Positions 19,988-43,175 of a stretch of DNA of 43,313 bases are shown in pieces. The notes under the pieces are model-generated. The model saw only the letters and a program-made list of their open reading frames with translations, made no database searches and was not told where the DNA came from. Each line of letters begins with the position of its first letter. Positions within the stretch are counted from its first letter, which is position 1. The stretch covers positions 1 through 43,313 of the forward strand of contig JAFRPY010000118.1 of NCBI GenBank assembly GCA_017428925.1. The letters are read 5' to 3'. The DNA comes from Prevotella sp. (lineage in GTDB: Bacteria; Bacteroidota; Bacteroidia; Bacteroidales; Bacteroidaceae). A program made the position numbers and the translations under genes.

Positions 19988-21919
19988 ATGGGAAAGATTA
20001 TTGGAATTGACTTAGGAACTACCAACAGCTGCGTTGCCGTTTTCGAGGGCAACGAGCCAGTAGTAATCGCCAACAGCGAGGGTAAGCGCACAACCCCCTC
20101 CGTGATTGGCTTTGTGAAGGATGGTGAGCGCAAGGTCGGCGACCCCGCTAAGCGTCAGGCCATCACGAACCCGAAGAACACCGTGTACTCCATCAAGCGT
20201 TTCATGGGTGAGACCTATGAGCAGGCCCGCAAGGAGGCCGAGCGCGTGCCGTACACAGTGGTCAACGAAAACGGCTATCCGCGTGTCGACATCAACGGAC
20301 GCAAGTACACCCCGCAGGAAATCTCGGCCATGATTCTGCAGAAGATGAAGAAGACCGCCGAGGACTACCTCGGACAGGAGGTCACCGATGCTGTCATCAC
20401 CGTGCCTGCCTACTTCTCCGACTCACAGCGCCAGGCCACGAAGGAGGCCGGTCAGATTGCCGGTCTGAACGTGCAGCGCATCGTCAACGAGCCTACCGCA
20501 GCCGCTCTGGCCTATGGCGTCGACAAGGCAAACAAGGATATGAAGATCGCAGTGTTCGACCTCGGTGGCGGTACGTTCGATATCTCCATCCTCGAGTTCG
20601 GCGGCGGCGTGTTCGAGGTGCTCTCCACCAATGGTGACACCCACCTCGGTGGCGACGACTTCGACCAGGTCATCATCGACTGGCTGGTGAACGGCTTCAA
20701 GGCCGACGAGGGCATCGACCTCTCGAAGGACCCGATGGCCATGCAGCGTCTGAAGGAAGCTGCCGAGAAGGCAAAGATCGAGCTCTCCTCCTCCACCACC
20801 ACCGAAATCAACCTGCCGTACATCTCTGCTGAAGGCGGCGTGCCCAAGCACCTCGTGAAGACCCTCACACGTGCTCAGTTCGAACAGCTCGCACACTCGC
20901 TCATCCAGGCTTGCCTCGTGCCCTGCCAGAATGCAGTCCGCGACGCTAAGCTCTCCACTAGCGACATCGACGAGGTCATCCTCGTGGGCGGCTCCAGCCG
21001 TATCCCCGCTGTGCAGACCCTCGTGAAGAACTACTTCGGCAAGGAGCCTTCGAAGGGCGTGAACCCCGATGAGGTGGTGGCCGTAGGTGCCAGCATCCAG
21101 GGCGCTATCCTCAACAAGGAAGGCGGCGTAGGCGACATCGTGCTTCTCGACGTGACCCCGCTGACGCTCGGTATCGAGACCCTCGGCGGTGTGATGACGA
21201 AGCTCATCGACGCCAACTCCACGATTCCTTGCAAGAAGTCCGAGACCTTCTCCACGGCCGTCGACAACCAGACCGCAGTCACCATCCACGTGCTGCAGGG
21301 CGAGCGCCCGATGGCTGCACAGAACAAGTCCATCGGACAGTTCAACCTCGAAGGCATTGCCCCCGCACGTCGTGGCGTTCCTCAGATCGAGGTCACCATC
21401 GACATCGACGCCAACGGTATTCTGAACGTGTCGGCAAAGGACAAGGCCACCGGTAAGGAGCAGGCCATCCGCATCGAGGCTTCCTCCGGTCTGAGCGAGG
21501 ACGAAATCAACCGCATGAAGGCTGAGGCCGAGCAGTTCGCAGAGGCCGATAAGAAGGAGCGCGAGCGCGTCGACAAGCTCAACCAGGCCGACTCGCTGAT
21601 CTTCTCCACCGAGACCTTCCTCAACGAGAACGGCGACAAGATTCCTGCCGACCAGCGTCCCGCCATCGACAGCGCCCTCCAGCAGCTGAAGGACGCCCAC
21701 AAGGCCGCCGACGTCACTGCCATCGACAACGCCATCAACAACCTCAACCAGGTCATGCAGGCCGCCTCTGCCCAGATGTACAGCCAGGCAGGTGGTGCAC
21801 AGCCCGGTGGCGCAGGCTTCAACGGTGCCCAGGGCGGTTCCGGCTTCCAGGGTGGACAGCAAACCCAGTCCAACCCCAACGACGACGTCCAGGATGCCGA
21901 CTTCGAGGAGGTGAAGTAA
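19988..21919 (+). CDS. dnaK: Chaperone protein DnaK (Hsp70)
   Basis: The 643-residue Hsp70 binds and releases unfolded polypeptides in an ATP-driven cycle with DnaJ and GrpE, neither of which is in the window. The nucleotide-binding domain starts [20 protein letters not shown] and contains [25 protein letters not shown] and [10 protein letters not shown]. The substrate-binding domain starts near residue 390 ([19 protein letters not shown]). The C-terminal lid is followed by a Gly/Gln-rich stretch and ends DADFEEVK. It is transcribed alone, with a terminator 32 bases after its stop. Confidence 0.98.
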
Positions 21920-27365: not shown

Positions 27366-29399
27366 ATGGAAATGAACATACCACGCGCCTCTATCCACGT
27401 TGGCGCAGACAAGAAATCGTTCTCAGCCCAGATGGGTAACGAGGCAGAGCGTAGAGGCTGGGACGAGAAACGTTATCACTCCAAGAATGCTGAGACGGAG
27501 AAGAACAACCATTACAACTTCTCACGCAAGCATCTCAACTTTGAAATCACCAAGGGGCGCAAGGTCATACCCCTTGGCTCCAATCCTATTCCACTCCATC
27601 AACGCCTCCAGCAGCGTCACGAAGAATTGGGCTTCAAACCATACATGGATGCCAATCATCCCGACCAGATAGCGAAGAACAGTCCAAACGGGTTAGTGAA
27701 CATCATCTTTGGTGGTGACCACGAAGTGATGAAACGACTGGCCTTTGGCGAACAACAGATAGACACCTCAGACCCATACGCTGACAATAGCCACATCAAG
27801 CTGATGCCAGCTATCTATGAGTGGGCAAAGGACTCCTATCAGTTCTGCTGCAGTATGTGGGGTGAGGAAAACATCATTGGCTTCGACGTGCATTGTGATG
27901 AGACTGGTGTTCATGCTCATGCCTTGACCGTTCCTGTAGAGCAGGTCAAGAAGCGTGGACGTATCGGCAGTCAGTATGTCAACAAGGACAATCCCGACAA
28001 GGTCCTGTCAACGAAAGAGTGGAAGGCTTTGCCCAAGGAGGAACGCGGCAACTACATCAAGACTGAGTCAGCAAAAGGTGTGGTAGAGCGTGTATCGTAT
28101 GCCAAGGTATGGGGCGAGACGGTCAAAGACAAGTCCGGGTATCTCTCTGACCTCCACACAAAGTACTATAATGAGGTGGGCAAGAAGTATGGTTTGGAAC
28201 GAGGCATCCCATACCAAGAACTCTCCGAGGAGGAGAAAAGGGAACGCAGACACAAGAGCAAGGTTGTGTTGGAAGCTGAACGACAGGCGAAACAGGCCAT
28301 AGCAGAGGCAGAAAAACTGAAAGCGGAGATTGAAGCAGAAGCATCTATTGCTACTCAACAGAAAGAGGAAGCTCAGAAGGAACTGAAGACTGCTCAATCT
28401 GGCTTCCTTGCAAAGATCTTCCAGCCAGGCAAGTACAAGAAGGAGGAAACTGCAAAACTCAAAGAGTCGTATGATGCTGGTGTCAAGGAAACCATCGGCA
28501 GCTTTATCAAAGCAACGGGGCTGAAATGGAAAAGTGAACCAACCGCCGAGTCCTTGGGACGACAATACCGCATGTCATGGGACACGAACAAGAACCTTTC
28601 CAATGACTTGAAGAACAAGGAAGGAATCATCTCATCAAAGGATGTCGAAATCCGAGGACTTCGCGCTAAAGTAACCACCCTAACAGAAGAAGTGAACGGA
28701 CTCAAATATCGCTTGACACTCATCGATGAGAACGCCGTAGAGCGACTGCGTAATGCCAAGAAAGCCGAAACTTCTCGTGCCGACAAAGCTGAGAGTGAAC
28801 TGCACTCGCTTCGGTCGACGTACCAAAACCTCCTGGGAAAGTGGAATGCCCTTTGGAATGAGCCAGAGTACAGCGAGGCAGCAAGGAAGGTAAAGGAGCG
28901 CAAAGAGCACGAGGCTCGACTTGCTGCAGAGAAACAAAACCGATACCAGAACATACTCAATCGTTTCATCGCAGAAGGACGCGCTGCCCTCAGAGCATTC
29001 GCTCTTTCAAATAGAACGAACTTCAACGACAAAGAGGCTACATCCATCTACTACGGTATCATGGCTGTTGCCCATAAGATGAAATTGAGCCTTGGTACAA
29101 AGGAAGGTATTACCTCGGCCGTCAACAATTTTCTTAGTGGTATGTCGTGGCGTGAGTGCTCAAAATTCAATGTAGAGTGCGTCACTAGCTGGACACATCT
29201 ATTTGCAGAACAGGATGTGACCTACGAGCCATCTATCATAGACAACTTTATCTCTTTCGTTGATTATATGTCATGTAGTGCAGAAACCTACACTTCCCTT
29301 GGAGGCTCCAATGGCTGTGCAGATCAGCTCACCAATTGGGACGGTACGAAGAAACTTGGCCTCGGCTCACCAACAAAGAAGAAAGGTCAGTCTTATTGA
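27366..29399 (+). CDS. mobV: MobV-family relaxase (plasmid recombination/mobilization protein)
   Basis: The 677-residue protein nicks oriT and pilots the strand during mobilization. The metal-binding motif of MobV is H176-x-D178-E179-x3-H183-x-H185 (FDVHCDETGVHAHALTVP). An upstream motif near 50-60 (NFSRKHLNFEI) corresponds to the NRE-type motif I. After residue about 290 come long charged coiled coils (about 290-345 and 415-500). The C-terminal third (GYGIMAVAHKMKLSLG-like region) has no domain I recognise. No mobB or mobC is nearby. The second ATG (27372) is an alternative start. Confidence 0.9.
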   Translation: MEMNIPRASIHVGADKKSFSAQMGNEAERRGWDEKRYHSKNAETEKNNHYNFSRKHLNFEITKGRKVIPLGSNPIPLHQRLQQRHEELGFKPYMDANHPDQIAKNSPNGLVNIIFGGDHEVMKRLAFGEQQIDTSDPYADNSHIKLMPAIYEWAKDSYQFCCSMWGEENIIGFDVHCDETGVHAHALTVPVEQVKKRGRIGSQYVNKDNPDKVLSTKEWKALPKEERGNYIKTESAKGVVERVSYAKVWGETVKDKSGYLSDLHTKYYNEVGKKYGLERGIPYQELSEEEKRERRHKSKVVLEAERQAKQAIAEAEKLKAEIEAEASIATQQKEEAQKELKTAQSGFLAKIFQPGKYKKEETAKLKESYDAGVKETIGSFIKATGLKWKSEPTAESLGRQYRMSWDTNKNLSNDLKNKEGIISSKDVEIRGLRAKVTTLTEEVNGLKYRLTLIDENAVERLRNAKKAETSRADKAESELHSLRSTYQNLLGKWNALWNEPEYSEAARKVKERKEHEARLAAEKQNRYQNILNRFIAEGRAALRAFALSNRTNFNDKEATSIYYGIMAVAHKMKLSLGTKEGITSAVNNFLSGMSWRECSKFNVECVTSWTHLFAEQDVTYEPSIIDNFISFVDYMSCSAETYTSLGGSNGCADQLTNWDGTKKLGLGSPTKKKGQSY

Positions 29400-29501: not shown

Positions 29502-29535
29502 TTTGATGGGATTCCGATATTTATTATTATCTTTG
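29502..29535 (+). promoter_or_regulatory. Promoter of the AT-rich cargo operon
   Basis: TTTG (29502-29505) and TATCTTTG (29528-29535) form a near-ideal Bacteroidetes -33/-7 pair with a 22-base spacer. The leader to the ATG at 29594 is about 50 bases and has no evident hairpin. Confidence 0.7.
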
Positions 29536-29593
29536 TAGTCAAAATCTGACAATTCAAATTTCAAACAGCCCTAAAGCTAACATTTAACGTCTT

Positions 29594-30883
29594 ATGGGAA
29601 CAAAAGAGGCCAAGTATGATTTCATAGGAGAGTTCTATCAAGGTATTGCTATCGTTATGAAAAACGACACATTTGGTGCTATTATGGTTGGAGGTAATGA
29701 GATAATTCCTCCAATATATAAAGCCTTAAGTGCTTTTGAAAATGGTATAGCCACTGCAAAATATGAAACCTTTGAACACAGAATAGAAGAAAGAACAATA
29801 AATCTGTCAAAACAAATTCAAGTTGATTGTGGTAAAGAGACTCTTTTCTTACCGAATATTTACGACTGGGGACATAATTATGTGGGAGAAATATGTATCG
29901 TTGAAAAAGATGGTGACATAGGTGTTATTGACAAGGAGGGAGGCATCATAGTTGCATTAGGTTCATATAAATATGTTGTCATCATTAATGAACGTATAAT
30001 AAAAGTTGCAGGAGAGTCTATTGAATCAGAGTTGCGAGTGTTGGGACATATTAATTTTGACACTATGGTTTCAGATGATAAAGAAAAAATAGTTAAAATG
30101 AAAAGCTATACTAAATGGGGGCTTTTAGACAATAAAGGAACACCCGTAATACCATGTATTTATGATGGCATAGACCCATATGATTCGTATTTGAAAATAC
30201 GCAAAGAAAATCTTTATGGAATAGTTTCTGCGGAAGGAGTTCCAATAGCACCTTGCATTTATGATAAAATTGAACTATTTTGTTCTTTTATCAAAGCTTA
30301 CAAAAATGACAAGTTCGAAGTATTCAATAATCTCGGGAAAAAAATAATCGAAATAGGTCAGTATGAATATGCAGAGCTTGGAAATAGGTGTTTAGTTGTT
30401 GTCGCAAAAGGGAAAAAGAACGCCGCTTATTCCACTACACGTAATCTTTATACTAATTGGGGAGTTTTAGATTTCAATGGAGAAGAAGTAGCTTATTGTG
30501 GCTATTCTGCTGTATCTATTGAAAGGGGAGAATATATTCTTGCTTGCCAAACAATACCCATAGATGATATATACAATGGTCGTGAATTAGAAGACGAAGA
30601 TGATAGAAATTATTACAATTGGGTAAAAAGTTCTGAAAACAATTACAACTTTGGATTGTGGGAAATAATCAATAAAGAAGGCGATATTATAATAGATGAC
30701 ATAGAGGGGAGTGAGGAAGATGCAAGAATGGCTCTTGATTGTTATCTTAAAAAATCAGGATCAGATGATACGGAATGCTATGATATTAGTTATTCTAAAT
30801 ATGGTGGCTATAATAGTTGGGATGATGATGCCATTAACGAAGCTTTTGAAGGGAATCCTGAATTAACTTGGAATGTTGATTAA
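29594..30883 (+). CDS. WG-repeat-like protein, first gene of the cargo operon
   Basis: The 429-residue protein has degenerate WG-type beta repeats: FGAIMVGGNEIIPPIY (27-42), IGVIDKEGG (109-117), KWGLLDNKGTPVIPCIYDGI (174-193), LYGIVSAEGVPIAPCIYDKI (207-226) and NWGVLDFNGEEV (288-299). Such repeats are thought to fold as beta propeller-like or solenoid scaffolds for protein binding. The C-terminal 100 residues are very acidic (ELEDEDDRNYY, SWDDDAINEAFEG). No signal peptide is present, so it is cytoplasmic. Codon use is far more AT-rich than the flanking genes. The next gene begins 13 bases after its stop (or overlaps, if the ATG at 30873 is used), indicating one operon. Confidence 0.75.
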   Translation: MGTKEAKYDFIGEFYQGIAIVMKNDTFGAIMVGGNEIIPPIYKALSAFENGIATAKYETFEHRIEERTINLSKQIQVDCGKETLFLPNIYDWGHNYVGEICIVEKDGDIGVIDKEGGIIVALGSYKYVVIINERIIKVAGESIESELRVLGHINFDTMVSDDKEKIVKMKSYTKWGLLDNKGTPVIPCIYDGIDPYDSYLKIRKENLYGIVSAEGVPIAPCIYDKIELFCSFIKAYKNDKFEVFNNLGKKIIEIGQYEYAELGNRCLVVVAKGKKNAAYSTTRNLYTNWGVLDFNGEEVAYCGYSAVSIERGEYILACQTIPIDDIYNGRELEDEDDRNYYNWVKSSENNYNFGLWEIINKEGDIIIDDIEGSEEDARMALDCYLKKSGSDDTECYDISYSKYGGYNSWDDDAINEAFEGNPELTWNVD

Positions 30884-30896
30884 AATTAAAAAACAT

Positions 30897-31952
30897 ATGC
30901 AGGAAGAAAATTTCGATTTTGAAGAATACGAAAAGACATTAAAGTCTAAGCCTGATTATATTTTAGATCAGTGCTATGATATGATAATGCATATTTCAGA
31001 AGATAGTATCATCAGTCTCTACACAAGTTTTGATAACTTTTTGTTTCAAGATATTGATTACGGAAAAGTTATATCCATAATGCCGAAGTGGGTAGCAGAT
31101 ACGGGTATAAGTCCAGAAAGTGCATGTGACAAAGATTCTTTTGAGAAATTGAAATCAACTTTCTCACATCCTTATCTTAATAGGTTCATATACTATTATG
31201 ATGTGTGGAGCTTAATTGCTGCGGTACAAGATAGATTGCAAGCAGTCGAATACTTTATGCGAGATTTTTATTCTTCGATACCATGCTTCTTGAAATATGA
31301 TAAAAAGAAATACACATCATGCATTAGGGTTGGAGGTATAAGCAGTACTAATGCATTTGTTTCTTTGAATAGCATCTTTGTGTCTCTTGCATCTGTGTTT
31401 GATTTGTTGAGTAAAATAGCAGTTGAACAATACAAGTTTGGTCAATATGATTTTTCTAAGTACAAAAAGATGAAAAGCGAGAGTGTCCTCTATAATTATA
31501 CTTATAATGATATTAATCCAACGTTGAAAGGAAAGGGGGGTCTGTTTTCCGCTCCACTATGTGTTCGGAAAATCCTTACATTTCGAAATGAATATATCCA
31601 CAACGGCCCTTGGGATTTGAGATGCAGTATATACGAAACATGTATTGAAGATAATCCAGCTGACATAATTGTGTATAGTCCTGATATGGATGAATATGGG
31701 AATTTCGTCACTTCAGGTTCTCGTGACAAGTTTTATTCGCAGGGCAATATGATAAACATCCAACTCCCTCATTTAGTAATGGACACTCTTGATGTTATCC
31801 AAAAAACTATTGATGAGATTGTGGTGTTGTATTCACAGGAAACGACAAGAACAGAAGATGAAAATCTTACAAAGGAATGCATCGATGAGATAACTATGTA
31901 CTACGAATCGTTAAAGAATGATACTTGTCAATTATTAACACCTAAAAAATAA
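30897..31952 (+). CDS. Unknown protein with HEPN-like R-x4-H motif
   Basis: The 351-residue protein is mostly helical by composition and has no signal peptide or membrane segment. I do not recognise the family as a whole. Near residues 150-240 two long helices (NSIFVSLASVFDLLSKIAV, then LCVRKILTFRNEYIHNGPWD) carry R230-N231-x3-H235. This is the R-N-x3-H form of the R-x4-6-H catalytic motif of HEPN ribonucleases, found in a typical position at the start of a late helix. If real, it would be an RNase effector. Only three bases separate it from the next gene. An alternative start at 30873 overlaps the previous gene. Confidence 0.65.
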   Translation: MQEENFDFEEYEKTLKSKPDYILDQCYDMIMHISEDSIISLYTSFDNFLFQDIDYGKVISIMPKWVADTGISPESACDKDSFEKLKSTFSHPYLNRFIYYYDVWSLIAAVQDRLQAVEYFMRDFYSSIPCFLKYDKKKYTSCIRVGGISSTNAFVSLNSIFVSLASVFDLLSKIAVEQYKFGQYDFSKYKKMKSESVLYNYTYNDINPTLKGKGGLFSAPLCVRKILTFRNEYIHNGPWDLRCSIYETCIEDNPADIIVYSPDMDEYGNFVTSGSRDKFYSQGNMINIQLPHLVMDTLDVIQKTIDEIVVLYSQETTRTEDENLTKECIDEITMYYESLKNDTCQLLTPKK

Positions 31953-31955
31953 TAT

Positions 31956-34865
31956 ATGGCTAAATATAATTCTATATTGTCAGATGACAAAATTCAAAAA
32001 GTTTTCGATAAACTACAAACGCTTAATGCTGATTTTATCAGTTTTGGCGATTTCTTTTTTGGATGTTGTATAGTTAGTTTTAAACAAAAAGCTGGAGATA
32101 TTTACAAATCTGGTTCTGTCTTAGTTGACGAAAATGGTGAAATAATGTCTATAAAGATTAAAGGGAAAACTTATGATGGTTTTGATAGCATTGAACCAGG
32201 AAAAGAAGGATCATCATTATTGCAGCTAGGTCATATTACAGATTCTGACGGCAATAAGACACAATACTTACATTACGCCATTGACATTCATGAAGAAAGG
32301 CGTGATAAGCCATATTGGCATTGGGAAGAAGGTATTTTTGACACAGAGAAGATTAGAGTTGTTTTTGATGAGGACATAAAGGGAATTCAAGCAAAATTGT
32401 GGACAGAGAAACTCATGTGCATCTCATATTTGGACAATGAGGATAGAAAATATGGGGTAATTAAAAAAACTTTGGGGAAATGGGATTGGTTAATTAAAGC
32501 AAGTTTTGCTTTTGTAGATTATATAGACGATAAAATTTTTACATATGATAACGATGATGTAAAGACAGGGAAAGGCCAATTGTATGAATTAAAAATGAAA
32601 CCATTAGAGTTTTGCGAGAATAACGGAAAGATGATTGTAACAGGAACAATTGTCAATTCCCCCAAAAGTATTATACGAAACGGCAAGTATGCTGGAGCAT
32701 ATTTCTCCAGCATAGAGTGCTGGAAATATTCAGAAGAGGATTTAGCAAATTTCTTTTTTTTAGTAGACAAGATTGTAATTGACTGGCCTGAAAAATATCG
32801 TGCCTATAGAGATTCTGCAATGATAAAAAAGGCTCTGCTAATTGACAAAAAAGAACAAATAGTATGTTTTGAGATTCCAACTTATGTTGACAAGGACAAT
32901 AATGTTCTTGAAGTCTCCACCCTTATTGATGGATTAACTTTTGAAGAAGCATATCTCAAACATTATGATTACATTAATGAACTCATTAAAAATTTAAAGA
33001 TTAAGGTGAAAGAATGTGTGTTTTCATCAATGTTGAAAGAAGATTATGCTAATAATGAAAACCCTTATTATAATGAAAATTGGAATGACGATTATAACTC
33101 TGGTGTAATATGCGGTAATAGATTTAAGTATTTCCGAGATACGATTATTTCTTCAAGGGATAATATTTGTAATATTTTGGATAGTAACACAATATATGCA
33201 TTAAGGAATTATATAAAGAATAATTATTATACTTCTATCGAAGAAGAGTTCTGCTTTTTTAAGGGAAAAGTAGCTACAATCGGAGTTCCCCCAAATAATG
33301 AAAATGATTATGAAAGTGTTGTTTTACTTGTCAATAGAGACGGGAAGATTATTGACAATGGATATACCGATATTCGAGTGATAAATGACGATGTCATATT
33401 ATATGAAATAGGGGGAATGGTAATTGTTGAAAACGAATCTGAACCAAACATTTATACGTCATATTATGAAGCCTCTGAACAAGGCATTATAAACTATAAA
33501 GGAGATCTTTTATTTAAAGGGGATTTGGGAAATTTGTCTGCGGCATCCGTGAAGTCACAATATTTATTATTAGAAAAGCCCAAATTTACTGAAATAGAGA
33601 GAGATAAAATTGAGTATTATTTATCTGAATATGTTGGTGAGGAGAGGGATTCTTGTGAATGCCCAGAATGTGGTGCACAGGCTTATTGGGATGAAGATGA
33701 AGAATGTTACATTTGTGAAGGCTGTGAGAATCATGTGCAAGGAGAACATAAAGACAAACAAAGTTGGGAGTTGTCTAAGATACAATCATTAGCTGCTGAC
33801 AATTTCGAAGACGTTCTTTCTTCTGAGAAAGTTAATCATGGCCAATTTATTACAGAGACAGAAGAAGAGAGGAACGAGCGGGAATATTGGGAACAAGACC
33901 CAGAATGGCAAGAAGAAATGCGGGCAATGCAGGAAGAAAGAGAATTTTGGTCAGACGATGAACAGGAAGAAAAATATTTAGAAGGTAAATTGTACTCTCT
34001 ATTCTCAATTTCTAAGAAATCATTTTTGATTCCTTTCCAAAAATGTAAAATATTAGTAAATCCTCATGGCTTTAATCCTGGGATATATTTGGTTGATGAG
34101 CAAAAGGAAGAAGGACTTACAGCAGGAATAAGCATGCCGTTCGATCCTAAACTAAAAAAAGGAGAATGGGTATTGCAAAGAAGTTATTGGAATGGTGAAT
34201 ACTATCATACCTTACGTGGAACCGTATTCCATACTATCCTTGATACTTTCCGTTATGGCCCGCTAACGGGTATGACTCTGTCATTAGCATTTAAGAAGGA
34301 TTTTCAAATGTTAGTCAAATACCTTCAAGATAGTTGCGTTTTTATTACTACTAATGCATTAAAACAATTGTGCCAGAAATATCTTAATGAGTACCCCAAA
34401 GATATAGAGAAAATCATCTTACTCCGTGATCTTTCATTTGAATTTGAGGGAATTAAAGAGGGTAACGACATAATTGATGGAAAGGCTTCTTATTATGGTA
34501 TTGTGGAATTTGGAAGAGATAGATTTTATGATCCTATCCAGGATAAAGGCTGGCACAATGGCGAATCGTTCAAAGATGTAGTGAATAATAACCCAGATTA
34601 TATAATTGGTTTAATCAAGAACGACAAGATAGACGTTTCCAATAAAGTTCTTTCAGATTTTACTGATAATAACACTTTTTATAATCGATTGAAGAATGCT
34701 TTTGAAGTCCAAGAGAAGAAGAGAATGGAAGAGGAAGATTGTTGGCCAGACAACGAACCAGATTATAATGATTATGAAAGAGATACTTGGAATGCAATGA
34801 CAGACGGACAATATGGAGAGATGCCAGAAGGGTTCGATGGCGATTATGATTTCACTGGTCACTAA
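31956..34865 (+). CDS. Large protein with zinc ribbon and DUF3820/ExoX-C-like tail
   Basis: This 969-residue protein is not a family I can name. The N-terminal half has scattered beta-rich, WG-like segments (YGVIKKTLGKWDWLIKASF; VVLLVNRDGKIIDNGYTDI). A zinc ribbon sits at 567-590: C567, C569, C572 then C584, C587, C590. It is followed by an acidic coiled region with EEERNEREYWEQDPEW. Near 845-890 the segment KGWHNGESFKDVVNNNPDYI resembles the small DUF3820/ExoX C-terminal motif (FGKYKGKSF...DPDYL). That suggests nucleic-acid or polymerase contact, although the leading FGK is not clear. The C-terminus is acidic and Tyr-rich. It is the third of four tightly spaced AT-rich genes. Confidence 0.65.
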   Translation: MAKYNSILSDDKIQKVFDKLQTLNADFISFGDFFFGCCIVSFKQKAGDIYKSGSVLVDENGEIMSIKIKGKTYDGFDSIEPGKEGSSLLQLGHITDSDGNKTQYLHYAIDIHEERRDKPYWHWEEGIFDTEKIRVVFDEDIKGIQAKLWTEKLMCISYLDNEDRKYGVIKKTLGKWDWLIKASFAFVDYIDDKIFTYDNDDVKTGKGQLYELKMKPLEFCENNGKMIVTGTIVNSPKSIIRNGKYAGAYFSSIECWKYSEEDLANFFFLVDKIVIDWPEKYRAYRDSAMIKKALLIDKKEQIVCFEIPTYVDKDNNVLEVSTLIDGLTFEEAYLKHYDYINELIKNLKIKVKECVFSSMLKEDYANNENPYYNENWNDDYNSGVICGNRFKYFRDTIISSRDNICNILDSNTIYALRNYIKNNYYTSIEEEFCFFKGKVATIGVPPNNENDYESVVLLVNRDGKIIDNGYTDIRVINDDVILYEIGGMVIVENESEPNIYTSYYEASEQGIINYKGDLLFKGDLGNLSAASVKSQYLLLEKPKFTEIERDKIEYYLSEYVGEERDSCECPECGAQAYWDEDEECYICEGCENHVQGEHKDKQSWELSKIQSLAADNFEDVLSSEKVNHGQFITETEEERNEREYWEQDPEWQEEMRAMQEEREFWSDDEQEEKYLEGKLYSLFSISKKSFLIPFQKCKILVNPHGFNPGIYLVDEQKEEGLTAGISMPFDPKLKKGEWVLQRSYWNGEYYHTLRGTVFHTILDTFRYGPLTGMTLSLAFKKDFQMLVKYLQDSCVFITTNALKQLCQKYLNEYPKDIEKIILLRDLSFEFEGIKEGNDIIDGKASYYGIVEFGRDRFYDPIQDKGWHNGESFKDVVNNNPDYIIGLIKNDKIDVSNKVLSDFTDNNTFYNRLKNAFEVQEKKRMEEEDCWPDNEPDYNDYERDTWNAMTDGQYGEMPEGFDGDYDFTGH

Positions 34866-34893
34866 TTATTAGAAACAATTTATTGTATTCAAA

Positions 34894-35550
34894 ATGGAAG
34901 ATATAAAGTACTTTTTAGAAACAGAAAAAAAGTTCCAGGAAGAACACTCTGACGGACCTGAACTTTACTATGACCCAGAATGTGGTGGCATGACATACAA
35001 ATCATATCCAGACGATTTTTTGGAAGAAGGCTGGATGAATAAATTTGCGCAAGAGCCACATTCAGAGAAAGTAAGGAGTGCAATGAAAAAGTATAACCTC
35101 ACAGAAGTCGAAGTCCTTATTATGAACTGCTTTTATGGTAATCTGTCTCAGTATTTCAGGGATGATACATATGAACAGTTTGGGGAAGTTCCTGAAATAT
35201 CACAAAAAATGCAGAAAGTACTGGAGAATTTTATAAGGAAAGCGCCCAAACATAAAGGAGGTGTACTTTACCGATTTCTAAATTCACATGATAGATCAGA
35301 TTTCAACATAGGTGATGTATTTGAGCCCTCATTCAGCCTTACGACAACAAATGAGGATTGGGAACAAGACAAAAATTCATATGTGATTACTCCACTTCCA
35401 GAAGAATCCACATCAGCATATGATATATATAAAATATACAATCATGGTGAAGAAAATCAAGTGAATTTCCTTAAAGGAACTAAATTTGTAGTTACCAGAA
35501 TTGAAAAGACCCCCAATGGTCATCGTCGAATATATTTTAATGAATTATGA
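34894..35550 (+). CDS. ADP-ribosyltransferase-like protein with altered catalytic Glu
   Basis: The C-terminal 100 residues of this 218-residue protein follow the order of an ADP-ribosyltransferase exoenzyme fold. R127 lies in VLYRFL, a serine/threonine-rich FSLTTTN (147-153) stands where the STS motif belongs, and NHGEENQVNFLKGTKFVV (183-200) aligns with the (Q/E)xE-VL-PGTKF segment. In most members the residue before Val is the catalytic Glu; here it is Q189, with E187 two before. It may therefore be catalytically changed or inactive. The N-terminal 100 residues are helical and not recognised. It is the last gene of the cargo operon, 28 bases after the large protein. Confidence 0.7.
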   Translation: MEDIKYFLETEKKFQEEHSDGPELYYDPECGGMTYKSYPDDFLEEGWMNKFAQEPHSEKVRSAMKKYNLTEVEVLIMNCFYGNLSQYFRDDTYEQFGEVPEISQKMQKVLENFIRKAPKHKGGVLYRFLNSHDRSDFNIGDVFEPSFSLTTTNEDWEQDKNSYVITPLPEESTSAYDIYKIYNHGEENQVNFLKGTKFVVTRIEKTPNGHRRIYFNEL

Positions 35551-35663: not shown

Positions 35664-37250
35664 ATGGCACTAGCAATAAACATAGAAGACCTGCTGAACA
35701 AGCAGAAGATAGAATCCAACAGGATTGAGTTTAAGAAGGGTTGGAATCCGGCAAGCATATATCGTAGCGTATGTGCTTTCGCCAATGATTTTGATGACCT
35801 TGGTGGTGGGTACATCCTCGTGGGTGTGGATAGTGATGATGTGGGGATGGCTATTCGGCCTGTAGAAGGTGTGCCCATTGAAAAGATTGACGGCATTCTA
35901 CAGGAGATGGTGGGTTATAACAACAAATTGTCACCATACTATATGCCCAGGACAAGCGTTGAGGAAGTAGATGGAAGGCAGGTTTTAGTGATATGGTGTC
36001 CTGCCGGCATCAACCGTCCTTACTCTGTGCCTGAGAATGTGACGGCAAAGAGTGGTAGCAAAGAGTACTTTTACATTCGCAGTGGGACCAGCAGTATCAT
36101 AGCCAAGGGAGAGGTGCTGGACGAACTGCGTGAATTGGCCAGTCGTGTACCATTTGATGAGCGCGGCAACGACGATATTCAGTTAGAGGACATTTCGCTG
36201 GTACTACTTCGCGACTATCTCGTTAAGGTGGGTAGCAGGTTGGCTGACCAAGTGGCAACGATGCCTCTTCCGAAGATTCTTGACCAAATGGAACTATACA
36301 CGGGGCCAAAAGAGAACCGCTTGATTCGCAACGTGGCAGCCATGATGTTCTGCGAGAATCCAAGCAAGTTCTTTCCCTACACTCAGATTGATGTGGTGAC
36401 ATTCCCTAATGGCAAGCTGAAAGATCCAAATAATTTCACGGAAGTGACATTCAAAGGTAGCGTACCTCAGATGATAAAAGAGACGATGGGGTATATCAAG
36501 AGCAATGTGCTCAAAGAACATGTACGCAAAGTTTCAGGGAGACAAGAGGCAGACCGTTTTTGGAACTACCCCTACGACGCAATAGAAGAGGCAGTCGTAA
36601 ATTCGGTATATCATCGGGATTTCATGCAACATGAACCTATCGAGATAACTATTGAGCCAACGGGAATCTCAATCCTTAACTGTCCAGGCCCCGACCGCAG
36701 TATTCCAAAGGAGGACATAGAAAGGGGCGATATGCTAAAGAGCCGCCGCTATCGTAACCGTCGTTTGGGTGACTTTTTGAAGGAACTAGACCTGACAGAG
36801 GGTCGTTCAACGGGTGTCCCGACCATTCAGGCCAAGTTGGCTGAGAATGGTTCGCCTCGTGCATTCTTCGAGACGACCGATGATCGTCTTACTTTCTTGG
36901 TGACAATTCCTGTTCATGAAGGATGCTACCACAGTTCAGAGAAAAGTTCGGGAACGAGTTTGGAAACAAACTCAAAAAGTTCGGAGAAAGGTGTACTTGG
37001 TTCGGAGAAAAGTTCGGAGAAAGCCTCAAAAAGTTCGGAGAAAAGTTCGGAGAAAAGTTCGGAGAAAATCCTTGATTTAATCAAGAACAAGCCGACAATA
37101 TCAGCTGCAGAAATAGCCATGGAAATAGATATGTCAGCACGAGGTGTCGAGAAACAAATTCGCAAGCTTCGAGAGGCTGGTATCATTAAGCGCATCGGTG
37201 CTGACCGTGGTGGCTATTGGGAAATCACAGTTACGAAAGAAGACAAATAA
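35664..37250 (+). CDS. AlbA_2 (Schlafen-like) / RecG-type HATPase transcriptional regulator-like protein
   Basis: The 528-residue protein has an N-terminal AlbA_2 domain (about 15-135; NRIEFKKGW, GGGYILVGVDSDD), a linker, and a HATPase_c_4-like domain (about 285-405; AIEEAVVNSVYHRDF and GRSTGVPTIQAKL). A hydrophilic linker rich in SSEK repeats (about 424-468) follows, then a C-terminal winged helix (about 470-525; ISAAEIAMEIDMSARGVEKQ). Such proteins are common in Bacteroidetes genomes and are usually called ATP-binding or putative DNA-binding proteins; some are linked to phage defence and RNA handling. It is followed 14 bases later by an XRE regulator. Confidence 0.85.
   Translation: MALAINIEDLLNKQKIESNRIEFKKGWNPASIYRSVCAFANDFDDLGGGYILVGVDSDDVGMAIRPVEGVPIEKIDGILQEMVGYNNKLSPYYMPRTSVEEVDGRQVLVIWCPAGINRPYSVPENVTAKSGSKEYFYIRSGTSSIIAKGEVLDELRELASRVPFDERGNDDIQLEDISLVLLRDYLVKVGSRLADQVATMPLPKILDQMELYTGPKENRLIRNVAAMMFCENPSKFFPYTQIDVVTFPNGKLKDPNNFTEVTFKGSVPQMIKETMGYIKSNVLKEHVRKVSGRQEADRFWNYPYDAIEEAVVNSVYHRDFMQHEPIEITIEPTGISILNCPGPDRSIPKEDIERGDMLKSRRYRNRRLGDFLKELDLTEGRSTGVPTIQAKLAENGSPRAFFETTDDRLTFLVTIPVHEGCYHSSEKSSGTSLETNSKSSEKGVLGSEKSSEKASKSSEKSSEKSSEKILDLIKNKPTISAAEIAMEIDMSARGVEKQIRKLREAGIIKRIGADRGGYWEITVTKEDK
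36933..37067 (+). repeat. 12-bp tandem repeats encoding SSEK units
   Basis: Copies of AGTTCGGAGAAA, some degenerate, encode Ser-Ser-Glu-Lys in the linker of the preceding protein. The last three are exact and adjacent. The period is a multiple of three, so copy-number change alters linker length without breaking the frame. Confidence 0.85.
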
Positions 37251-37264
37251 AAAATGATATAGAT

Positions 37265-37552
37265 ATGTTATTCGGAAAAAAGATTAGAGAACTAAGAGAT
37301 GAGAATGGAGTTCTGCAACGCCAGTTGGCTGCACTATTGGAGATAGACACCCCGATGTTCAGTAAGATTGAACGTGGCGACAGGCGTGCTAAGCGCGAAC
37401 AAGTTATAAAACTTGCTGAGTATTTCCATCAGGATGAGAACGAAATGCTTACCCTTTGGCTGGCTGACAAAGTGCTTGATGCGGTGGATGGCGAGCAAGA
37501 ACTCAGTTCGCAAGCCATTGAAGTTGCCCAAGAGCAAATCAAAGAACTGTAA
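37265..37552 (+). CDS. XRE-family helix-turn-helix regulator
   Basis: The 95-residue protein has a Cro/CI-type HTH (about 8-62: KIRELRDENGVLQRQLAALLEI, then FSKIERGDRRAKREQVIKLAEYF), followed by a short C-terminal helix. The ATG at 37265 gives the usual MLFGKKIRELR start; an upstream in-frame GTG would extend it into the previous gene. It lies 14 bases after the AlbA_2/HATPase gene and 4 bases before the next gene, so it may autoregulate this three-gene group. Confidence 0.88.
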   Translation: MLFGKKIRELRDENGVLQRQLAALLEIDTPMFSKIERGDRRAKREQVIKLAEYFHQDENEMLTLWLADKVLDAVDGEQELSSQAIEVAQEQIKEL

Positions 37553-38633: not shown

Positions 38634-39035
38634 ATGAAACAAAATAGATACAATGAATTATATAAAGAGTTGAATCCTTCCCTTAAAATGAAGTTGAATG
38701 CTATACGTATGAACTTACATGAGGGAAAGGCTTCTTGTTTAGTAGGTGCAGGCTTTAGCAAGAATGCCGAAATGGATGATGCCACTCATATGAAAGATTG
38801 GTTCGAGCTTGCAGATGACTTCTATGAGACTCTATATGGAGAAAAGCCAGACGATAAGAATGTAAGATATAAGAATGTTCTTAGGTTGGCATCTCAAGTG
38901 GAGGCATCCAAAGGAAGAGGGGAGCTAGAATCTTTGATTCAAAATTCTCTGCCTGATGAGCGTGTATATCCGGGACGCTTGCATATCGAACTAATGAAAT
39001 TGCCATGGTCTGATGTTTTTTACTACAAATTATGA
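38634..39035 (+). CDS. SIR2-domain protein, N-terminal fragment before frameshift
   Basis: The 133-residue frame contains the NAD-binding start of a SIR2_2 domain, CLVGAGFSKNAEM with G38-A39-G40. It reads up to LPWSDVF and then leaves the family pattern (YYKL, stop). The continuation TTNYDTLLEKA is in the next frame. The run GTTTTTTACT at 39016-39021 has six T residues; five would give DVFTTNYD in one frame. The full product would be about 1,160 residues. Translation of this frame alone gives only a third of the SIR2 domain and should be inactive. Confidence 0.85.
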   Translation: MKQNRYNELYKELNPSLKMKLNAIRMNLHEGKASCLVGAGFSKNAEMDDATHMKDWFELADDFYETLYGEKPDDKNVRYKNVLRLASQVEASKGRGELESLIQNSLPDERVYPGRLHIELMKLPWSDVFYYKL

Positions 39036-42000
39036 CACACTGTTAGAAAAGGCTTTCATAGAAGCTGATAGGTATTACTACAAGGTAACAAATAAGGAAA
39101 CATTATTGTACACGCCTCATCCAAGGTTGATTAAGCTGCATGGCAGTTTTCCCGATATACGTCCATTTATTATAACCGAAGAAGACTATCGCACTTATCC
39201 ACAACGATTTCCAGAATTCGTAAATACAGTGCGACAGTCTCTAATAGAAAATGTTCTTTGCCTTATTGGATTCTCTGGTGATGATCCAAATTTTCTCAGT
39301 TGGATAGGCTGGTTGCGTGATGTTATGGGAGAACAGGCCTCTCCTGTGTATCAGATCACGTATAATAACCAAATGCACGATTCTAATATTCATCTATCGC
39401 ACGACCTTGGAATCGATGTCATCAACCTTGCAGACATAAAAAAAGTTAGTGGTTTCTCGGAAGCGTTGGATTTTTTCTTGATGTATATAGGTAAGAAATA
39501 TAAAACGGATTGGTCGGGAGAGTTAAAAAATGCCCATACATCAATACACATCGGAGAAAACTACGACGTCGATGCTCTTATAAAGGAAATGAAGATGATA
39601 CGCGAATCGTATCCAGGCTGGATTGTATTGCCAGCATCTCATATGAGTGAATTTTCCGACACAAAGGAATATATACCTTTTTGGACCAACATATATGCGA
39701 AGTGTGCTAATGATGTTATAAAGCAGGTATATTTCTTGTTCGAAGTAAATTGGCGTATTGAAACAGCATTGGCATCTCCAGATATGGAATGGTATTTACA
39801 AGCTTTAGAACAATTGCCTTCAGAAGATGCAAATGGTTTGGATAATTCTACATATCAGAAGCTATTGGGATTAAAGCTTTCTCTTCTCAACACCTATCGT
39901 TTCAAAGGTGCAGATGATGATTATGTTCATCTGTTAGAAAACATTGAGACTCACATTTCTCAGCTCACTTACGAGCATAAACGGCAGTTGAATTATATAA
40001 AATGTCTATATGCCATCTCGACATTGAATTATTCCAACGTTCAACAAGTTGTTGATGACTGGAACCTCCGCTCATTTGATTATCAAGGCCACTTGTGGAA
40101 AGCCGGGATGCTGATAGAGATGGGGCAGTTGCGAGAATCCCAAGTAATGCTTCGTGACTTATTGAAGTCAGTGAAAAGGAATATTCTAACATCAAAGTAC
40201 TCCGCACAGTTGTCTTCTGTTCGCTCTGCCATAGAACTCTTCCTATGGAGGATGGATTATATGTATTCCATGTATAAATCTAACCCAGATTTCGACTTTG
40301 CTGAGATTGCGAGAACTTGTCGCGACATGATTGTTAAAGAAGAAAACAAACCATCGCATCACCAAATAACACATGGTTTCAATCTATTAGACACTGGTCA
40401 ACAATGGAATTTTGGCGGAAGTGGATTTAGAGGAGATTATTATGGGGCGATTCGTTATTTCCGACTATATGAAAAGTTAGGATTCCCATTTGGTATGCCT
40501 GTAGGTTTTTCTTCGGAAGTTGAGACTAAGACTTTTATGATAGAGCGATTAATACGTTATTATCCGAAGTATGCATTACAATGGATCGTTAGATGTTGTG
40601 AGACAAAAACTATAAATGCATTAAACCGTGAAACATTATTGCATATTAGGCGAGAAGATGCTTGTGCGTTTTTTGACAAGTCGATTGCATCTTGCGAAAT
40701 AGGTCTTGACCGGTATGCAGGAAGAATCCTACAGAAACGAGTTTTGACTTGTCTGTTGCCCATACTGGTAAAACTTTCAGTTTTGCTTACGCAGGAAAGA
40801 ATGGAACGTGTATTTAATGCGCTTTGTATCGTATATCGTCAACATTCACGAAAGTATGATGGAAAACAAGTCCAAACTTTATACGACAATTTGTCTGGAG
40901 AATCGTTGAAACGCTGCCAGAAAAAAGCTTTGGAACAACCAATTTTGCAATCAGGCGTTAGAGAAGAAGATTTTAAAATGCCCAATTTGTTGAAAGATGA
41001 AATTGATTATTCTATAGAGGCTGGTAACATCGCCATGACAGGTTTATCGTCTGATGTAATTAAAGAGCAACAAGCAGCTTACAAAAGACTCAGAATCTTA
41101 AAACGGACAAAGAAAGATGATTTAACTTCTTCTGTTTTAGATACGTGCATTAATGTATGGAGAACAATACCGCCTTTATCTGATGACAAATTAGAATCTT
41201 TTTATGAGTTTCCTGCAGAGGAAAATACGATGAAATCCATAGCGGCTTCTGAGTTAGATTCGTTTTTGGCTACAGACTTCACAAATGAGAATTCTTCTGC
41301 CTTCATAGATAAAATCTCGAATAAATTATTCCGTCTTCAAATAGGCTTCCCTCGTTTTACAGAGGAACAACACTCGCTATTCTTGAACAAAGTAATAAAA
41401 ATTCTTACAGAAAATGAAGATGCATTCAAAAAGGATGATTCAGACAGTTTCTTTGGAGGCTTTCGCTCTCATGTAGAGAGGATTTTCTCCTATTTGAACT
41501 ATTATAGCCAAGTAGAGGGTCTTCCGTCAAAAGAGAATGATATCTGGCTGTCTTTTAAAAACGTAATTGAACGATACCGTAAACACGGATATCCAGTATT
41601 AACAATTATGACTCACCTTGTTTATTGGGGCATATGGAACAAGACTACTATCAAAAGTTACGTGAATAAAGCAATATTCTCAGAATCTAGTTCATTAGTC
41701 CGTGATGCTGGTCAGGCTTTAATCTATACGGCTACCAAGCAAGGTTCAAAAGTTAATCAAACCATAATTAAAGACATAATAAGTAAGGTGTCTTATGTCT
41801 TTGATGAGAGTACTCATACATATCTTCGTATTATAAGAGATGTCTTATTGAATAAGGGGATAAGTAAAGAAGCACATGTCAAGTTAGAAGAGTGGGTGAA
41901 TAACCTGCCATATAGAATAGAACGATGTTCGGTATCAGAAGAAATTAAAGACGATATAAGATATTATGCAAATCAAATAGCAGGTATTATGACAACAATT

Positions 42001-42111
42001 TGGCCCGACTGGGCAGGTTTAAGTGCTTGGCAAACTTATATGGAAAAAGAACATATAAAGAATGATGTCAGAAACGGATTTGAAATAGGAGTCCGTCTCG
42101 CTAATTCATAA
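39013..42111 (+). CDS. SIR2-domain protein, remaining SIR2 part and large helical C-terminus
   Basis: The frame holds the rest of the SIR2 domain: TTNYD (N6), H43 in KLHGSFP and GFSGDDPN (86-93). About 850 residues of alpha-helical, repeat-like sequence follow, without recognised motifs. SIR2 plus a long helical C-terminus is the layout of defence-associated sirtuins (DSR1/DSR2 type), which deplete NAD+ after sensing phage proteins. The ATG at 39013 is probably not a real start, because it would drop the GAG motif. The stop overlaps the next start (TAATG), so the two genes are translationally coupled. Confidence 0.85.
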   Translation: MFFTTNYDTLLEKAFIEADRYYYKVTNKETLLYTPHPRLIKLHGSFPDIRPFIITEEDYRTYPQRFPEFVNTVRQSLIENVLCLIGFSGDDPNFLSWIGWLRDVMGEQASPVYQITYNNQMHDSNIHLSHDLGIDVINLADIKKVSGFSEALDFFLMYIGKKYKTDWSGELKNAHTSIHIGENYDVDALIKEMKMIRESYPGWIVLPASHMSEFSDTKEYIPFWTNIYAKCANDVIKQVYFLFEVNWRIETALASPDMEWYLQALEQLPSEDANGLDNSTYQKLLGLKLSLLNTYRFKGADDDYVHLLENIETHISQLTYEHKRQLNYIKCLYAISTLNYSNVQQVVDDWNLRSFDYQGHLWKAGMLIEMGQLRESQVMLRDLLKSVKRNILTSKYSAQLSSVRSAIELFLWRMDYMYSMYKSNPDFDFAEIARTCRDMIVKEENKPSHHQITHGFNLLDTGQQWNFGGSGFRGDYYGAIRYFRLYEKLGFPFGMPVGFSSEVETKTFMIERLIRYYPKYALQWIVRCCETKTINALNRETLLHIRREDACAFFDKSIASCEIGLDRYAGRILQKRVLTCLLPILVKLSVLLTQERMERVFNALCIVYRQHSRKYDGKQVQTLYDNLSGESLKRCQKKALEQPILQSGVREEDFKMPNLLKDEIDYSIEAGNIAMTGLSSDVIKEQQAAYKRLRILKRTKKDDLTSSVLDTCINVWRTIPPLSDDKLESFYEFPAEENTMKSIAASELDSFLATDFTNENSSAFIDKISNKLFRLQIGFPRFTEEQHSLFLNKVIKILTENEDAFKKDDSDSFFGGFRSHVERIFSYLNYYSQVEGLPSKENDIWLSFKNVIERYRKHGYPVLTIMTHLVYWGIWNKTTIKSYVNKAIFSESSSLVRDAGQALIYTATKQGSKVNQTIIKDIISKVSYVFDESTHTYLRIIRDVLLNKGISKEAHVKLEEWVNNLPYRIERCSVSEEIKDDIRYYANQIAGIMTTIWPDWAGLSAWQTYMEKEHIKNDVRNGFEIGVRLANS

Positions 42112-43175
42112 TGAAAATGGAATATACAATACAAAAAATACTAGAATTCCACGACTTATTTCCAAAGGAAAAAGATTTGGACGTGCGAACAATACTGAAG
42201 AAATATAGCCGTGAGTATATTGTTCGTTGCTGTCATGTCCTATGCAATAATTACAGCAATGCAGCCTTTATTCCAGACGATAATAATACCTTTTTCTCAG
42301 AGGTAAGCAAGAAACATATTCCTGGTCTAAATGAAAAAATATCTAAATATCGTAATACAACAGGGCTGGATAGAGTATGCTATTGTACAGTGAAAACAGC
42401 ATTAGAGTTGATGCGAGTGGCCTTTTCTATTCCCGTACAAGAGTACAAGAATGAAGGACAAAAAGAAGATTTTGAATATGATTTGTTTCGTTCTGTGCTG
42501 ATGCTTAATGAAAATTTGATGGCTTTTTCCCATGTTGGTCAATTAGATTTAGCAACACTGTTGTTCGCCAACTACTACGTGCAGAATGATATAATTAATC
42601 AAAATCAGAGTGATTCTTTTGTTCGTCAGATTACACACTATAAGAAACTAGTGGATTTCTTAGAGAATCACCCTAAATGTGCTAATGCATATGAAGTATT
42701 CATGCAAAAGATGGGGATTAATTCAATTGATGAGTATTCCAAAACTTGGATGTCATTAGTGTCGCTATCAATGGGATATTTGAAGAGTGGTGTAAAAGCA
42801 TGTCCTATCTTTGACTATAATCAGTTGAAAGATGAAGATCATCTTATAAGTAAGTCTGTGCTGGATAATCTCTGTATAGACATAACGGCTACTATACCGT
42901 ATGATGCAGAAGATGCGGAATCAAGAGATAATAATGTAGATTATAGAACTTTCCGTTCACACCCTCTGGTGAGAATTGATAGTGGTAAATATCTGATTTA
43001 TAGTCTTCACTTGTTACTAGAGAGACTATACAGCAGTCTATTCTTTGATATAAAGGATGGATTCAAGAATGCTTTTGCATTTTATAATAAAGAATTTGTT
43101 GAGCGACGATTGTTTCAACCTGCAGCTCTTGCTGCTCTTTCAAAGCATACGTCGTTCTTTTTGCCTACTAAATAA
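42111..43175 (+). CDS. SIR2 partner protein, probably truncated by the IS
   Basis: This 354-residue protein shares one base with the SIR2 stop and is clearly part of the same operon. It is helical at first. The stretch YRTFRSHPLVRIDSGKYLIY (about 280-299) and what follows resemble the region that precedes a PD-(D/E)XK nuclease in several uncharacterised proteins. The reading frame ends ...SKHTSFFLPTK just where an AC-starting IS end would begin (43175-43176), so the natural C-terminus is probably lost and the TAA comes in part from the IS. The missing part could have been a nuclease, which is inference. Confidence 0.65.
   Translation: MKMEYTIQKILEFHDLFPKEKDLDVRTILKKYSREYIVRCCHVLCNNYSNAAFIPDDNNTFFSEVSKKHIPGLNEKISKYRNTTGLDRVCYCTVKTALELMRVAFSIPVQEYKNEGQKEDFEYDLFRSVLMLNENLMAFSHVGQLDLATLLFANYYVQNDIINQNQSDSFVRQITHYKKLVDFLENHPKCANAYEVFMQKMGINSIDEYSKTWMSLVSLSMGYLKSGVKACPIFDYNQLKDEDHLISKSVLDNLCIDITATIPYDAEDAESRDNNVDYRTFRSHPLVRIDSGKYLIYSLHLLLERLYSSLFFDIKDGFKNAFAFYNKEFVERRLFQPAALAALSKHTSFFLPTK

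What the first reader, a model, noticed from the sequence alone, without database searches (positions are those of the whole stretch)
29502..35550. Unrecognised four-gene AT-rich operon: WG-like, HEPN-like, zinc-ribbon giant and ART-like proteins
Seen: one good promoter, four genes with gaps of 13, 3 and 28 bases, base composition much lower in GC than the carrier element, and location directly behind the relaxase in a mobilizable element, where defence cargo usually sits. Known: HEPN RNases and ADP-ribosyltransferases are common effectors in antiphage and toxin systems; WG-like repeats and zinc ribbons are common sensor or scaffold parts. Inference: a multi-protein immune or abortive-infection system not matching one I can name.
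Basis: partly seen in the sequence, partly recalled or inferred. Interest (0 to 1): 0.85.

Follow-up and report, generated by a model that had tools for sequence, protein, structure and literature searches.

The report
Mobile defence-like operon with variable subunit
A four-gene operon riding on a mobile element in a Bacteroidales bacterium looks like an uncatalogued anti-phage or conflict cassette whose largest protein has a strikingly variable middle, as expected of a part that recognises a changing target, but no function has been tested.

Summary
The four-gene, AT-rich operon is real (GC 0.335 against 0.46 in the carrier). It is cargo of a MobV element inserted at the 3' end of dnaK. A second element (L050, MAG RUG13423) carries the same four genes in order. 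There, genes 1 (first 238 codons), 2 and 4 are nearly identical (dS 0.04, 0.03, 0.00), but gene 3 is 65% identical and its middle (residues 131-510) is saturated at synonymous sites between better conserved ends. Gene 3 thus exists as at least two anciently diverged alleles, like a specificity subunit. Its C-terminal tail (WDAxTDGxYGDxP...G) recurs on otherwise different proteins, two of them cargo beside the same AlbA_2/HTH flank with other enzymes (PLD, FRG). Gene 2 has a HEPN-type motif in 11 of 11 members spanning the region; its fold is unconfirmed. Gene 4 is ART-like only by motif and weak profile hits; the catalytic Glu is Gln in 3 of 3. Elsewhere, homologues of genes 2 and 4 were seen without the other three, so one four-protein machine is not proven. 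Best reading: a defence-like cassette with variable recognition subunit and HEPN effector (about 0.5). No PADLOC 2.0 match.

The parts
29502..29535 (+). Candidate Bacteroides-type promoter TTTG-22-TATCTTTG (consensus recalled)
   Evidence: sequence; pattern count (4 places in 43 kb for spacer 19-23)
29594..30883 (+). Gene 1, WG-repeat protein (429 aa)
   Evidence: Pfam WG_beta_rep E 3.9e-20; 94-96% identical in L050, where it is split into two ORFs
30842..30880 (+). Gene 1 C-terminal AFEGNPELTWNVD, similar to the end of a 547-aa protein in L019 (AFEDDPDAEWNID)
   Evidence: by eye, not searched for
30873..31952 (+). Gene 2, HEPN-like helical protein (359 aa; a start at 30897 is possible too)
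   Evidence: PHROG 31026 of unknown function E 3e-13
31584..31601 (+). HEPN-type motif R238-N-E-Y-I-H243
   Evidence: kept in 11 of 11 members that span the region, P0002 itself included; a twelfth, truncated member ends before it
31956..34865 (+). Gene 3, 969-aa protein with conserved ends and a variable middle
32346..33485 (+). Variable block of gene 3, residues 131-510
   Evidence: 0.41-0.67 DNA identity in 8 of 8 150-base steps from 32351 to 33550, with indels; pS 0.80-0.82 against L050
33654..33725 (+). Cys cluster of gene 3 (C567, C569, C572, C584, C587, C590), zinc-ribbon-like
   Evidence: six of six Cys kept in the second allele; zinc binding inferred
34554..34625 (+). ExoX-like_C-like stretch of gene 3, residues 867-890
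   Evidence: Pfam PF20600 E 6.3e-4, 19.5 bits, below the 26.5-bit cut-off; a separate 137-aa protein of L043 joins ExoX-like_C (E 3.2e-14) to the same tail
34773..34862 (+). C-terminal tail of gene 3, ending ERDTWNAMTDGQYGEMPEGFDGDYDFTGH
34894..35550 (+). Gene 4, ART-like protein (218 aa)
   Evidence: identical in L050; profile hits to ART-family entries E 0.077-0.12
35452..35460 (+). ARTT-like E187-N-Q189, Gln at the place of the catalytic Glu
   Evidence: alignment of three relatives, positions; motif definition from PMC6829252 passages
27366..29399 (+). MobV relaxase, left flank of the cargo slot
   Evidence: NCBIfam MobV E 1.7e-39
35664..37250 (+). AlbA_2/HATPase_c_4/winged-helix protein, right flank of the cargo slot
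   Evidence: Pfam SLFN_AlbA_2 E 2.3e-14
37217..37552 (+). Small protein resembling XRE-type HTH regulators (by eye and recall, not scanned), right flank
   Evidence: a similar small gene follows or precedes AlbA_2 in the same direction in L021, L050, L094, L107
21902..21919 (+). att-like repeat at the 3' end of dnaK; only this copy is in the window, so the right end seems to lie beyond the contig
   Evidence: two copies bracket the element in L050 (1022-1039, 17792-17809)

Best explanation
The operon is a defence-like (phage or mobile-element conflict) cassette carried as swappable cargo of a MobV element. Gene 3 is proposed as the recognition subunit: its middle varies between alleles and meets the trigger, while its Cys cluster, ExoX_C-like stretch and tail are conserved parts that contact partners. 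Gene 1 (WG repeats) is proposed as scaffold. On recognition, gene 2, a HEPN-type protein, is released or assembled and cleaves RNA, stopping growth of the infected cell. Gene 4, ART-like with Gln at the catalytic position, is proposed to bind NAD or another ligand, or to restrain the others, rather than transfer ADP-ribose efficiently. Shown: operon, cargo position, second allele, motif conservation, shared tail. Inferred: every functional step.
For: Same operon in two elements, with gene 3 alone highly diverged and saturated in its middle while genes 1 (first 238 codons), 2 and 4 have dS 0.042, 0.030, 0.000. Carrier genes are intermediate (integrase 0.17, relaxase 0.30, AlbA_2 0.47). HEPN-type motif in 11 of 11 members that span the region. 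Some relatives of gene 2 lie among defence genes: directly behind a type I specificity gene in L053 and about 4 kb behind a gene with HEC-06/Orf5 hits in L056. Behind related relaxases, 9 of 10 proteins chosen by eye from 5 of the 12 regions read hit PADLOC models at 1e-10 or better: type III RM (L090), type IIG RM with helicase (L093), PDC-S31 and DEDDh (L094), GajB-like and RTasDUF1848 (L097), type I methylase (L098); the other 7 regions were not scanned. Beside the same AlbA_2/HTH flank, L107 has a PDC-S15 FRG gene. A Dsr2-like gene lies further downstream in the window.
Against: None of the four proteins matches a PADLOC model. The full set was found in one other genome only. Gene 2 and gene 4 relatives occur without the rest in the other loci read. 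Gene 1 is split in L050 (assembly error or decay), so it may be dispensable. HEPN fold unconfirmed; the gene 4 model is unusable (pLDDT 41.7); hhalign of gene 4 with T4 ModA/ModB gave 1.7%. The slot also holds other cargo (arsenic-type genes in L088, a toxin-antitoxin-like pair in L089, both named by eye). L050 is a MAG and the own genome a 122-contig draft of 85% completeness, so local mosaicism could be partly artefact, though both gene 3 alleles are intact long ORFs.
Confidence: 0.5

Rival explanations
1. Composite cargo: a HEPN-like singleton, WG and tailed proteins and an ART-like singleton were collected side by side in a cargo slot and share a promoter, without forming one machine.
For: In 7 of 7 named loci other than L050 (L051-L057) the gene 2 relative (50-54% identity) has no blastp match to genes 1, 3 or 4 in the stretch held; L054, L055 and L057 are cut near the gene by contig ends, and L051, L056, L057 are the same contigs as L013, L014, L015. 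In two plasmid records (L022, L023) phmmer found only gene 2; in the third (L024) only the annotation was read. Gene 4 relatives stand alone in L016 (a 3-kb contig) and L017.
Against: Gaps of 3 and 28 bases; all four kept in order in L050; genes 2 and 4 nearly identical there on both sides of a diverged gene 3, as if shared as one unit.
Confidence: 0.3
2. Competition or kin-discrimination cassette (exclusion of related elements or strains): the variable block matches a variable partner of other elements rather than a phage.
For: A specificity-like allelic block in a mobilisable element; mobile elements carry exclusion functions (general knowledge).
Against: The gene 2 motif points to an intracellular nuclease (inference). 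Secretion signals and membrane segments were not searched for.
Confidence: 0.12
3. Accessory genes of the element (transfer, stabilisation) without a conflict role.
For: Located between relaxase and AlbA_2/HTH genes; the slot also carries other cargo (L088, L089).
Against: Between the same two flanks the genes are wholly different in L021 and L094, so they are not needed for transfer.
Confidence: 0.08

Closest known systems
HEPN-family nucleases (Pfam HEPN_Cthe2314 the nearest model)
   Same: RNxxxH-type motif in 11 of 11 members that span the region; one relative (L023) has a weak HEPN_Cthe2314 hit over 177-251, E 0.0047, which covers its motif at 245-250
   Different: Gene 2 itself has no Pfam hit; that hit is below the cut-off (17.4 of 27.1 bits); no HEPN chain among the structural matches shown
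R-S-E class mono-ADP-ribosyltransferases (XopAI and Vis the top PDB hits; T4 ModA/ModB used as yardstick)
   Same: arom-R (Y126-R127), STS-like T150-T152, ARTT-like ExQ in the expected order
   Different: Catalytic Glu is Gln in 3 of 3; one relative (L017) also lacks the arom-R Arg; best E 0.077; no support from hhalign with ModA/ModB (probability 1.7%)
Type I restriction specificity subunits (HsdS), as analogy only
   Same: Conserved frame with a diverged, exchangeable recognition block (recalled)
   Different: No sequence relation was seen; two alleles only
FRG candidate defence gene (PDC-S15) beside a tailed WG-like protein (L107), and PLD-like protein beside a tailed WG giant (L021)
   Same: Tailed protein plus an enzyme next to the same AlbA_2/HTH flank
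   Different: Different enzymes; no gene 2, gene 4 or gene 3 body there
Dsr2 (SIR2-like) in the same window
   Same: Cargo of the same element
   Different: Different protein; in two frames here

Membership tests
HEPN nuclease | Rx4-6H motif | tested here: met
   11 of 11 members that span the region, P0002 included; truncated L015 lacks the region
HEPN nuclease | HEPN helical fold | tested here: inconclusive
HEPN nuclease | Pfam model above cut-off | tested here: not met
   No hit for P0002 at E up to 1; weak hit for 1 of 7 members
HEPN nuclease | RNase activity | not testable with these tools
   needs assay
R-S-E mono-ART | arom-R | tested here: met
   Y126-R127 in P0004 and in L016; absent in L017
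R-S-E mono-ART | STS motif | tested here: inconclusive
   S148-L-T150-T-T; definition in PMC6829252 is S-[TS]-[STQ]
R-S-E mono-ART | Catalytic Glu of [QE]xE | tested here: not met
   ENQ, ETQ, EWQ in 3 of 3
R-S-E mono-ART | ART fold | tested here: inconclusive
   single-sequence model pLDDT 41.7, not searched; profile hits E 0.077-0.12 among 5 hits in all
WG-repeat proteins | WG_beta_rep repeats in gene 1 | tested here: met
   E 3.9e-20, 4 stretches
WG-repeat proteins | WG repeats in gene 3 | tested here: not met
   no Pfam hit; own WG profile: P0003 1.3 bits against 13.2 for the best of 300 shuffles
Known PADLOC defence system | Match of any of genes 1-4 to a PADLOC 2.0 model | tested here: not met
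   0 hits at E up to 1
Defence cargo | Slot holds known defence genes in relatives | tested here: met
   9 of 10 proteins, chosen by eye from 5 of 12 regions read, hit at 1e-10; 7 regions not scanned, of which some show other or no recognisable cargo by eye

The most novel reading that the evidence does not exclude
This Bacteroidales family shares a modular immune platform in which otherwise different sensor proteins (WG, leucine-rich, or the gene 3 type) carry one common C-terminal tail read by a shared partner, while the enzyme next to them (HEPN, PLD, FRG, ART-like) and the variable recognition block are exchanged between mobile elements.
Probability: 0.18. Interest if true: 0.88.

Novelty: new variant of a known kind. 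Interest (0 to 1): 0.6.

Why it matters
If gene 3 is a recognition subunit, two natural alleles in otherwise nearly identical operons are a ready-made test of what a new immune sensor recognises. The shared tail gives a handle (pull-down) on a common partner of many unnamed Bacteroidales cargo proteins.

Tried and rejected
P0003 relatives: none in plasmids, phages, viral contigs or by the pattern scan of genome contigs. The pattern scans are weak negatives: one search missed L050, which the gene 2 scan found. In 251 family and 348 genus genomes only the own genome gave the whole protein; other hits were to the C-terminal tail or, in L004, to residues 739-930. Gene 4: 4 of 251 family genomes, own genome and one broken fragment included; only the own genome of 99 class and of 99 order genomes; none in plasmids, phages or viral contigs. 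Gene 2: 4 of 251 family genomes, own included, 3 plasmid records, 8 genome-contig loci with L050, none in phages or viral contigs. WG repeats in gene 3 tested and rejected (one search was a faulty first attempt). hhalign of gene 4 with T4 ModA/ModB gave no support. HEPN chains are absent from the structural lists shown, which excludes nothing. No Rfam family at gathering score in 21800-43313. att repeats were not found by the repeat finder, run on each side alone, but by direct comparison. Literature: 'WG repeat' with antiphage defence or HEPN gave no paper; with phage one on nucleoporins; Pfam-type names gave listings of 5 and 13 papers, none on defence by title and start of abstract; one of them, on Wolbachia phage WO (PMC4701759), holds 'KWG Leptospira' once and was not read. 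HEPN with ADP-ribosyltransferase and anti-phage defense gave one review, Bacteroidales cargo terms one plasmid paper, neither read. The library holds open-licence PMC papers only.

Full report
Observation. The four genes stand at the stated coordinates on one strand with the stated short gaps. GC is 0.335, against 0.46 for the mobilisation genes to the left. Upstream is a MobV relaxase, downstream an AlbA_2/HATPase/winged-helix protein and a small HTH-like protein (by eye). The window is the whole contig G000:C103 of a 122-contig genome.

The element. In L050 (uncultured Bacteroidales MAG RUG13423, CADALZ010000012.1; rumen by its name, recalled) the same element lies behind dnaK, between two copies of TTTGAGGAGGTRAAGTAA (1022-1039 and 17792-17809, 17 of 18 bases equal), the 3' end of dnaK. 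The window has one copy (21902-21919), so its element seems to run off the contig. It carries further cargo: a Dsr2-like SIR2 gene in two overlapping frames (38634-39035 and 39013-42111; PADLOC Dsr2 E 3.6e-36 and 5.8e-116).

A second copy of the operon. L050 carries all four genes in order. Gene 1 is 94-96% identical but split in two ORFs, gene 2 98%, gene 4 100%, gene 3 65% by blastp (69% by the aligner's count). Along the DNA, identity is 0.97-1.00 over genes 1 and 2 and 0.99-1.00 over gene 4. In gene 3 it is 0.86-0.89 near the start, 0.41-0.67 in 8 of 8 steps of 150 bases from 32351 to 33550, and 0.73-0.97 after that. NG86 dS: gene 1 first 238 codons 0.042, gene 2 0.030, gene 4 0.000; gene 3 0.82 overall, with pS 0.80-0.82 (beyond correction) in the four bins of residues 131-510, 0.16 at residues 1-60, 0.22-0.88 in the bins between 511 and 920, and 0.09 at 921-969. 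Carrier genes: integrase 0.17, relaxase 0.30, AlbA_2 0.47. The middle of gene 3 is therefore an anciently diverged allele inside an otherwise recently shared operon. Non-synonymous values stay below synonymous ones in every bin of gene 3, so this is old allelic divergence plus exchange; I could show no burst of positive selection. Two alleles are all I found.

The tail. The last 45 or so residues of gene 3 match otherwise different proteins. A 3-row tail profile hits 15 of 251 family genomes, own genome included (17 places), some only partly. Of 347 other genus genomes, 5 matched the gene 3 profile, each only at its C-terminal 47-64 positions. A 13-row tail profile hits the own genome and one other of 188 class genomes. 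The tail sits on WG giants (L021 1114 aa, Pfam; L106 1116 aa, by eye), shorter WG-type proteins (L107, Pfam E 8.8e-7; L109 and L110, by eye), a leucine-rich-repeat protein (L108, Pfam LRR_5), ExoX-like_C proteins (L043, Pfam; L047, by eye) and small proteins of 61-66 aa, in three of four loci read near a DUF4407-type gene (Pfam run in L045 only). Eight tail columns are invariant in 13 rows picked by eye, so conservation is somewhat favoured. The distribution suggests a factor of this bacterial family; its function is unknown.

The cargo slot. Thirteen stretches beside related relaxases were fetched; 12 were read, L100 being only 1.3 kb. Relaxases of L090-L093, L098 and L099 are only about 38-43% identical to the window's, so their slots are more distant. 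Ten proteins from five regions that looked like defence genes were scanned with PADLOC, and 9 of 10 hit at 1e-10: type III RM (L090), type IIG RM with helicase (L093), PDC-S31 and DEDDh (L094), GajB-like and RTasDUF1848 (L097), type I methylase (L098). Not scanned: L088 (arsenic-type genes by eye), L089 (toxin-antitoxin-like pair by eye), L095 (DUF2971-like and AlbA-like genes by eye), and L091, L092, L096, L099, where I recognised no defence gene by eye. Beside the same right flank (AlbA_2, HTH), L021 holds a tailed WG giant plus a PLD-like protein (PLDc_2 E 1.7e-21), and L107 an FRG protein (PDC-S15 E 6e-51) plus a tailed WG-like protein; in L107 no relaxase end was found in the 0.6 kb before it, where the contig starts.

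Gene 2. R-[ND]-x3-H-[ND]-G is present in 11 of 11 members that span the region, P0002 and its near-copy in L050 included, among them three proteobacterial plasmid records at 22-25% identity. Relatives at 50-54% lie in other mobile or defence contexts, e.g. right behind a type I specificity gene in L053. A DNA match to the E. coli relative is in 84 of 5426 genomes, all on chromosomes; the rows listed are annotated as hypothetical. The model is fairly confident and helical, with no decisive structural match. I take HEPN nuclease as likely by motif, not as established.

Gene 4. Three relatives share arom-R (two of three), STS-like and ARTT-like segments; the Glu that PMC6829252 (passages read) calls required for NAD cleavage is Gln in all three. 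The three best of five PDB profile hits are ART-family entries, E 0.077-0.12, not significant alone; NCBIfam gives XopAI at E 0.065. That paper describes XopAI itself as an ART-like protein with an altered site unsuited to NAD. hhalign with T4 ModA/ModB gives no support. Gene 4 may be a degenerate ART used for binding or control.

Judgement. The finding is real, and more specific than first described: the remarkable feature is the allelic middle of gene 3 within a conserved operon, plus the shared tail. A single four-protein immune system is the best but unproven reading; a composite cargo is the main rival.

Noticed in passing
38634-42111: Dsr2-like SIR2 gene in two overlapping frames, followed by a 354-aa gene (42111-43175) without a convincing family match
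   Followed up: partly
L050 8721-10011: Gene 1 of the second operon is split into two overlapping ORFs
   Followed up: no
L044, L045, L048, L049: Small 61-66 aa proteins that are almost only the tail, in three of the four loci near a DUF4407-type gene
   Followed up: partly
L046 6470-15001: Kinase-like fragment (by eye), tailed 312-aa protein, 1663-aa protein with a Sacsin-domain hit and AAA/PIN protein in one direction; a possible separate system
   Followed up: partly
L053 3761-16409: Type I restriction genes with two methylase genes in a row and a gene 2 relative directly behind a specificity gene
   Followed up: partly
L017 7094-7717: Gene 4 relative lacking both arom-R Arg and catalytic Glu, near a leucine-rich-repeat-like gene (by eye)
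   Followed up: no
L019 7742-9385: 547-aa protein weakly matching both ends of gene 3 without its middle (26% over 203 columns at the C-terminal side, weaker at the start), ending in the gene 1 type of tail
   Followed up: partly
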